A DNA stretch of 38,357 nucleotides from Candidatus Woesearchaeota archaeon. GTDB taxonomy: Archaea > Nanobdellota > Nanobdellia > Woesearchaeales > GW2011-AR15. Shown in pieces: positions 13,001-13,277 of this stretch; the first letter of the stretch is position 1; every line of letters starts with the position of its first letter. A program made the translations under genes and the position numbers. Below the pieces are notes generated by a model. That model was given only the letters and a program-made list of their open reading frames with translations, ran no database searches and had not been told where the DNA came from. Location of the stretch: positions 1 to 38,357 of the forward strand of contig JAFGJW010000009.1 of assembly GCA_016928835.1 (NCBI GenBank), written 5' to 3'.

Positions 13001-13010
13001 TTTTATAAAA
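13001..13010 (+). promoter_or_regulatory. Promoter of the tRNA-like gene
   Basis: ggaaag followed by ttttataaaa forms a BRE/TATA pair about 26-30 nt before the predicted RNA 5' end at 13035, the correct spacing for a stable-RNA start. Confidence 0.6.
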
Positions 13011-13034: not shown

Positions 13035-13277
13035 GGGCCCATAGCTTAGTCTGGTGGAGTGCCCGTTACGTGAAAACGTAGGCAAGACTGATATTGGCCA
13101 GATAGGCTATTTGAGATCGGGTGAAGAGTTTGAAAGGAGCTCTCTCGAAGTCCTGAGTTCAAATGAAAGCATAAAAATCTGAAATGATTTTTAGCTCCCA
13201 AAAACCTTTGGTTTTTGAGGAATCGGGGATTTTCAAATCGCAAAACCCCTGTTTTTACGAAAATCTCAGTGGGCCCA
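13035..13277 (+). tRNA. tRNA-like gene interrupted by large insertions (isotype undetermined)
   Basis: A 7-bp acceptor helix GGGCCCA (13035-13041) with TGGGCCC (13270-13276) encloses tRNA signatures: TA plus a D arm (GCTT 13044-13047, loop AGTCTGGTG, GAGT 13057-13060), and a T stem CTGAG (13153-13157) with T loop TTCAAAT, whose partner CTCAG (13265-13269) lies about 100 nt further on, directly before the acceptor. A73 would be the discriminator. CCCG (13062-13065) can pair with CGGG (13118-13121) as anticodon stem, leaving about 50 nt between them. A third excess segment lies between 13122 and 13152, flanked by GAAG repeats. The T-loop insertion folds into hairpins. Introns at several sites are the simplest reading; the anticodon cannot be called safely (GAG or TGA are possible outcomes). 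A different structured RNA with a tRNA-like frame is the alternative. Confidence 0.5.

What the first reader, a model, noticed from the sequence alone, without database searches (positions are those of the whole stretch)
13035..13277. tRNA-like gene interrupted at anticodon arm, variable region and T loop
Acceptor, D-arm and T-arm parts fit a tRNA and the 5' end is correctly placed after a TATA box, yet the gene is 243 bases long. About 100 bases are inserted after the T loop's TTCAAAT, and they contain three hairpins (for example TAAAAATC/GATTTTTA and CAAAAACC/GGTTTTTG). About 45 bases with a TACGT-GAAA-ACGTA hairpin are inserted in the anticodon arm, and about 25 between GAAG repeats in the variable region. 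Multiple non-canonical introns are known mainly from Thermoproteales; here they would be unusual.
Basis: partly seen in the sequence, partly recalled or inferred. Interest (0 to 1): 0.6.

Follow-up and report, generated by a model that had tools for sequence, protein, structure and literature searches.

The report
Isoleucine tRNA gene with four introns
This stretch is the genome's only detected gene for one isoleucine tRNA, cut by four separate introns that must be spliced out; it belongs to a Woesearchaeota-like archaeon in which most of the tRNA genes examined are interrupted, although the genome appears to encode only the simple kind of splicing enzyme.

Summary
Window 13035-13277 (+) is a tRNA-Ile(GAU) gene with four introns: 21 nt at 30/31, 22 nt at 37/38 (canonical), 26 nt at 45/46 and 100 nt at 59/60 in the T loop. 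The '45 bases' in the anticodon arm are two introns flanking the anticodon. Removing all four gives a 74-nt tRNA-Ile(gat) matching orthologs in four other genomes of the family at 65-68 of 74 positions. Those orthologs carry the 30/31 intron (three genomes) or the 45/46 intron (one) at identical sites, with compensatory base changes. No second Ile(GAU) gene was found. The gene is not odd in its own genome: 11 of 15 tRNA genes in 413 kb have T-loop introns, and both Glu genes also decode with four introns. T-loop introns almost always end in GAA, pairing with the invariant TTC of the T loop (12 of 14). Positions and mechanism are known from Thermoproteales and Asgard archaea. What is unusual is four introns per gene (a 2021 survey says up to three), the DPANN host, and a splicing endonuclease that looks like a single alpha-type subunit without the crenarchaeal loop linked to non-canonical introns. 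Splicing itself is inferred; no RNA data were available.

The parts
13002..13010 (+). TATA-like promoter element, centre about 29 nt upstream of the gene
   Evidence: sequence TTTATAAAA read directly; inference from archaeal promoter rules, not tested
13035..13065 (+). Exon 1: acceptor 5' strand, D arm, positions 1-30 (GGGCCCATAGCTTAGTCTGGTGGAGTGCCCG)
   Evidence: spliced product called tRNA-Ile(gat); orthologs 65-68/74 identical
13066..13086 (+). Intron 1, position 30/31, 21 nt; BHB central helix TGCC/GGCA, bulges CG^T and AG^A, inner helix TACGT/ACGTA
   Evidence: same site in G005, G001, G008 with compensatory changes (CGCC/GGCG, CACC/GGTG)
13087..13093 (+). Exon 2: ACTGATA, holds the anticodon GAT
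13094..13115 (+). Intron 2, canonical position 37/38, 22 nt; central CTGA/TTTG with one T-T mismatch, inner helix TGGCC/GGCTA, outer helix = anticodon stem
   Evidence: orthologs without it read CTGATAATCGGG directly
13116..13123 (+). Exon 3: anticodon stem 3' strand and first two variable-region bases (ATCGGGTG)
13124..13149 (+). Intron 3, position 45/46, 26 nt; central CGGG/CTCG, bulges TG^A and AA^G, inner helix AGAGTTT/GAGCTCT
   Evidence: same site in G006 with CGAG/CTCG and AGAAAG/CTTTCT
13150..13163 (+). Exon 4: rest of variable region, T stem 5' strand, TTCAAA of the T loop
13164..13263 (+). Intron 4, position 59/60 in the T loop, 100 nt; T-loop TTC pairs with intron GAA, 8-bp inner helix closes a junction with three hairpins
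   Evidence: minimum-energy folds; same-site intron with a related two-hairpin module in G002 (E = 6.7e-6)
13264..13277 (+). Exon 5: last T-loop base, T stem 3' strand, acceptor 3' strand, discriminator A

Best explanation
This is the functional tRNA-Ile(GAU) gene of a Woesearchaeota-like (DPANN) archaeon, interrupted by four BHB-type introns. The pre-tRNA is transcribed whole. The splicing endonuclease EndA cuts in the bulges flanking each intron, RtcB joins the exons, and a normal 74-nt tRNA results. Intron 4 sits in the T loop because the near-universal TTC there can serve as one strand of the cleavage helix, so an intron need only end in GAA plus three bases. Intron 2 probably matures after intron 1, because intron 1 interrupts the anticodon stem that is intron 2's outer helix. 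Shown: gene structure, helices, orthologs, presence of one EndA and one RtcB. Inferred: transcription, cleavage, ligation, order.
For: The spliced sequence is tRNA-Ile(gat), ARAGORN score 121.8; the unspliced sequence gives nothing. Orthologs in G005, G001, G008 and G006, with 1-2 introns each, give mature tRNAs 65-68/74 identical; G005 and G001 read CTGATAATCGGG uninterrupted, exactly the predicted junction. The 30/31 intron recurs in three of these genomes and the 45/46 intron in one, with central-helix pairs changing on both sides. No other Ile(GAU) gene within 3 mismatches of the 5' end; the only other GGGCCC gene is Ile(TAT). 12 of 14 T-loop introns in this genome, and 6 of 6 in relatives examined, carry GAA opposite TTC. 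One EndA (E = 1.7e-28) and one RtcB (E = 2.2e-174) are present.
Against: No RNA evidence. Intron 2 and intron 4 each have one mismatch in the central helix, and intron 4's inner helix does not abut the bulge in strict 3-4-3 register. ARAGORN alone is not decisive: 192 of 346 alternative intron sets were also called tRNAs. EndA looks like the type described as narrow in specificity.
Confidence: 0.93

Rival explanations
1. The gene is a decaying pseudogene with insertions, and Ile(GAU) function comes from elsewhere (a missed or split gene).
For: The genome is a 95% complete draft in 20 contigs, so about 5% is unseen; a split gene would escape pattern searches.
Against: All stems intact; intron helices show compensatory change across genera; no second gene found.
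Confidence: 0.03
2. Introns 1 and 2 are really one 45-nt intron, giving a different tRNA, Leu(GAG).
For: The automatic decoder, which penalises each extra intron, ranked this first, ARAGORN 118.0.
Against: It needs a weak BHB (3 of 4 central pairs, 2-bp inner helix), a lower score than Ile (118.0 against 121.8), and a Leu tRNA with a short variable arm; orthologs carry intron 1 alone followed by ACTGATAATCGGG.
Confidence: 0.01
3. Introns 1-3 are ordinary, but the T-loop insert is a mobile or guide-RNA element removed by another route, or used as its own RNA.
For: It folds into a three-hairpin junction; a two-hairpin module is shared with a T-loop intron in another genus but absent from that genome's Ile(TAT) intron. 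tRNA 3' ends are duplicated downstream in several genes of relatives, with breakpoints in the T loop.
Against: The ends fit the TTC/GAA rule shared by 12 of 14 T-loop introns here; excision at 59/60 restores an exact 7-nt loop; no Rfam match.
Confidence: 0.08

Closest known systems
Multi-intron tRNA genes of Thermoproteales (Pyrobaculum and relatives)
   Same: Several BHB introns per gene at canonical and non-canonical sites; 30/31, 45/46, 53/54 and 59/60 are listed positions (PMC4090602); similar introns recur in different tRNAs.
   Different: Those archaea use two-subunit EndA; the 2021 survey states up to three introns per gene (PMC8450103); here four, in a DPANN lineage, with one EndA subunit found.
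Intron-rich tRNA genes of Atabeyarchaeia and Freyarchaeia (Asgard)
   Same: 92-95% of tRNA genes contain introns, over half with several, often non-canonical (PMC11291895).
   Different: Different lineage; per-gene maximum not read here (supplement not available).
Nanoarchaeum equitans EndA and split tRNAs
   Same: Closest solved relative of this EndA is the N. equitans catalytic subunit, 3iey_A, E = 1.6e-36; also DPANN.
   Different: N. equitans has a second, structural subunit (NEQ261) and trans-spliced tRNA halves; here one subunit found and cis introns.
Micrarchaeum ARMAN-2 epsilon2 EndA
   Same: A DPANN archaeon able to remove relaxed introns (PMC12397907).
   Different: ARMAN-2 EndA is a fused ~390-residue protein with its own loop; this one is 191 residues.

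Membership tests
Archaeal BHB tRNA introns | Removal restores an exact tRNA | tested here: met
   74-nt tRNA-Ile(gat), score 121.8; orthologs 65-68/74 identical
Archaeal BHB tRNA introns | Two 3-nt bulges separated by a 4-bp helix at each intron, introns 1 and 3 | tested here: met
   4 of 4 central pairs, inner helices 5 and 7 bp
Archaeal BHB tRNA introns | Same motif at introns 2 and 4 | tested here: inconclusive
   3 of 4 central pairs each; intron 4 inner helix offset by one base
Archaeal BHB tRNA introns | Genome encodes EndA and RtcB | tested here: met
Archaeal BHB tRNA introns | Excision in the cell | not testable with these tools
   no RNA data
Two-subunit (alpha-beta)2 EndA | A second, structural subunit | tested here: not met
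   single hit by Pfam at E<=1 and by the protein itself at E<=10; draft 95% complete; a very divergent subunit could be missed
Crenarchaeal EndA | Crenarchaea-specific loop with K-P-R/K | tested here: not met
   YGTPLKENKIQLSL lacks the ten-residue ISKPKSAEEI stretch of S. tokodaii 2cv8; same in the relatives listed
alpha4 EndA | Homotetramer of one ~180-residue subunit | not testable with these tools
   size, domains and single copy fit; assembly not testable
Group I intron | Match to a group I covariance model | tested here: not met
   no Rfam match at gathering score nor any group I hit at E<=10

The most novel reading that the evidence does not exclude
A whole archaeal order removes many non-canonical, partly relaxed tRNA introns with a single CSL-less alpha-type EndA, breaking the accepted link between EndA subunit type and intron diversity; and T-loop introns arise from small elements that duplicate the tRNA 3' end at the T loop, the invariant TTC giving them a ready-made splice helix.
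Probability: 0.2. Interest if true: 0.75.

Novelty: new variant of a known kind. Interest (0 to 1): 0.45.

Why it matters
Standard searches see only 9 tRNA genes over the Rfam cut-off in this 95% complete genome, and 6 to 42 across 60 relatives. Such genomes would look as if they lacked tRNAs, which distorts quality scores and claims of dependence on a host. Reviews tie non-canonical introns to two-subunit or loop-bearing EndA (PMC4090602, PMC6379350). An order with one plain alpha-type EndA and many non-canonical introns would be a direct test of that idea with a single purified protein. The TTC/GAA rule offers a simple reason why the T loop is a favoured intron site, and a way to find such genes.

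Tried and rejected
Rfam over the window and at E<=10 around the locus: nothing credible. Group I intron: no match. Synteny with the neighbouring tRNA-binding protein did not lead to orthologous tRNAs, since the neighbourhood differs in relatives; the pattern search for the 5' end did. The strongest raw BHB in the window joins introns 3 and 4 (70 nt) but would delete the T arm, so I treat it as chance. An inner BHB inside intron 4 (35 nt) was considered as a nested intron; its central helix is mostly G-U and its removal does not improve the outer motif. A TTCAAATC inside intron 4 was considered as a relic of a duplicated 3' end; not supported beyond 8 bases. DNA search with intron 4 gave many weak hits to A/T hairpins; only the G002 hit was confirmed inside a tRNA T loop. 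I took one sample of about a quarter of G000 and about 390 kb each of three relatives, so the inventory is partial.

Full report
WHAT IS THERE. The window is contig C12 of a 1.53 Mb draft genome, 95% complete and 0.2% contaminated. The closest named relative of a window protein is Candidatus Woesearchaeota archaeon Zod_Metabat.833 (76% identity), so I call the organism Woesearchaeota-like; the placement rests on that protein and on archaeal genes such as DP2 polymerase. Between 13035 and 13277 lie all parts of a tRNA, but ARAGORN and Rfam see none.

THE FOUR INTRONS. I listed bulge-helix-bulge motifs computationally, with two 3-nt bulges, a 4-bp central helix and cleavage between the second and third bulge base. 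Three of the four introns come out of that list: 30/31 (21 nt, rank 3 of 222), 45/46 (26 nt, rank 6) and 37/38 (22 nt, rank 10). The fourth, 100 nt at 59/60, does not meet the strict rule. Its minimum-energy fold has the T stem outside, TTC paired with GAA, a 3-nt bulge on each side, an 8-bp inner helix (TGAAAGCA/TGTTTTTA) and three hairpins at a junction. Removing all four gives GGGCCCATAGCTTAGTCTGGTGGAGTGCCCGACTGATAATCGGGTGGTCCTGAGTTCAAATCTCAGTGGGCCCA, tRNA-Ile(gat), score 121.8. ARAGORN alone would not prove this, since 192 of 346 other intron sets also give tRNA calls; orthologs decide it.

ORTHOLOGS. A 20-nt pattern for the 5' end found the gene across relatives. In G005 only the 30/31 intron is present, and the rest reads CTGATAATCGGGTGGTC uninterrupted, which is exactly the junction predicted here for introns 2 and 3. 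G001 and G008 have the 30/31 intron plus one at 53/54; G006 has 37/38 and 45/46. Central helices change on both sides: TGCC/GGCA here and in G005, CGCC/GGCG in G001, CACC/GGTG in G008 at 30/31; CGGG/CTCG here and CGAG/CTCG in G006 at 45/46, where the inner helix changes too. Part of the change at 30/31 follows change in the exon strand, as expected if intron and exon must match. Mature sequences are 65-68 of 74 identical to this one. G002 has a T-loop intron with a two-hairpin module related to that of intron 4 (58 bases at 76%, E = 6.7e-6).

GENOME CONTEXT. In 413 kb of this genome, including the window, my finder gives 15 tRNA genes with scores above 27, and 11 have interrupted T loops; shuffled sequence of 1.13 Mb gives none at 24 or above. 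The finder needs intact acceptor and T stems, so the list is not complete. Glu(CTC) and Glu(TTC) also decode with four introns each. The same finder gives T-loop introns in 2 of 9 genes in G022, 2 of 4 in G019 (discounting one likely noise hit) and none of 11 in G004 (counts after setting aside a 3'-copy artefact). Rfam tRNA hits per genome run from 6 to 42 among 60 relatives, which suggests that interruption varies widely within the order; I did not check every low count.

WHY THE T LOOP. Of 14 T-loop introns decoded here, 12 have GAA three bases before the T stem, opposite TTC of the T loop; all 6 examined in relatives do too. The T loop's TTC is almost invariant in tRNA, so an intron that carries GAA near its end can form the cleavage helix in almost any tRNA. 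This is an inference; I found no paper stating it but did not search exhaustively.

THE ENZYME. Only one EndA is found, by Pfam and with the protein itself at E<=10; 58 of 60 relatives have at least one, nearly all exactly one. It is 191 residues with both usual domains. Its nearest solved relatives are the N. equitans catalytic subunit and the M. jannaschii alpha4 enzyme. It lacks the insertion that carries the crenarchaeal loop in S. tokodaii, as do its relatives. Reviews describe alpha4 enzymes as narrow and associate non-canonical introns with two-subunit or fused enzymes (PMC4090602, PMC6379350, PMC12397907). Introns 1 and 3 are strict BHBs at unusual places, which a narrow enzyme may handle; introns 2 and 4 are slightly relaxed. 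So the conflict with the accepted rule is suggestive, not proven. Quaternary structure was not tested, and a divergent second subunit or one in the missing 5% cannot be excluded. RtcB is present.

NOVELTY. All four intron positions are listed for archaea (PMC4090602). The 2021 survey of 217 archaeal genomes gives up to three introns per gene (PMC8450103). Asgard genomes have many multi-intron tRNAs (PMC11291895); their maximum per gene was not available to me. Searches for DPANN or Woesearchaeota tRNA introns found no report, within an open-access library only. I therefore rate it a new variant of a known kind.

Noticed in passing
L265:9630-9801 (own genome, Arg TCG); G004 L320, L326, L327; L173, L174, L177, L193: Complete tRNA genes are followed 60-120 nt downstream by a second copy of their 3' end that begins in the T loop (1 of 15 genes in this genome, 3 of 14 in G004, none in the upstream control). 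In G003 the repeat runs on into the 3' flank. The break lies at the T-loop intron site, hinting at a shared origin.
   Followed up: partly
L191:167-310 (own genome, C16 ~77.1 kb) and L194:386-470 (G007): A conserved RNA-like stretch of about 85 nt lies beside tRNA genes (45 nt at 87% and 29 nt at 97%); in this genome it holds an extra two-hairpin insert. No Rfam match.
   Followed up: partly
L313 + 19284 and L314 - 19230 (G022, Glu and Lys): Two different tRNAs in one genome carry clearly related T-loop introns, which suggests recent intron movement or duplication.
   Followed up: no
L191:325-466 (own genome, G000:C16:77224): tRNA-Ile(TAT) with a 37/38 intron and a strict BHB intron at 53/54; an uncommon Ile(UAU), otherwise noted for N. 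equitans and Korarchaeum (PMC8450103).
   Followed up: partly
L018 and L019 (own genome, C16 ~8.1 kb and C8 ~146.3 kb): Two further tRNA-like genes with several long inserts, including near positions 8-10 and in the anticodon stem, which I could not decode fully.
   Followed up: no
G002 and G044: Two of the 60 relatives have two full-length EndA genes.
   Followed up: no
window:12122-13042 (-): Cas4-like PD-(D/E)XK nuclease whose longest frame starts 8 bases inside the tRNA gene; the true start is probably further downstream on its strand.
   Followed up: no
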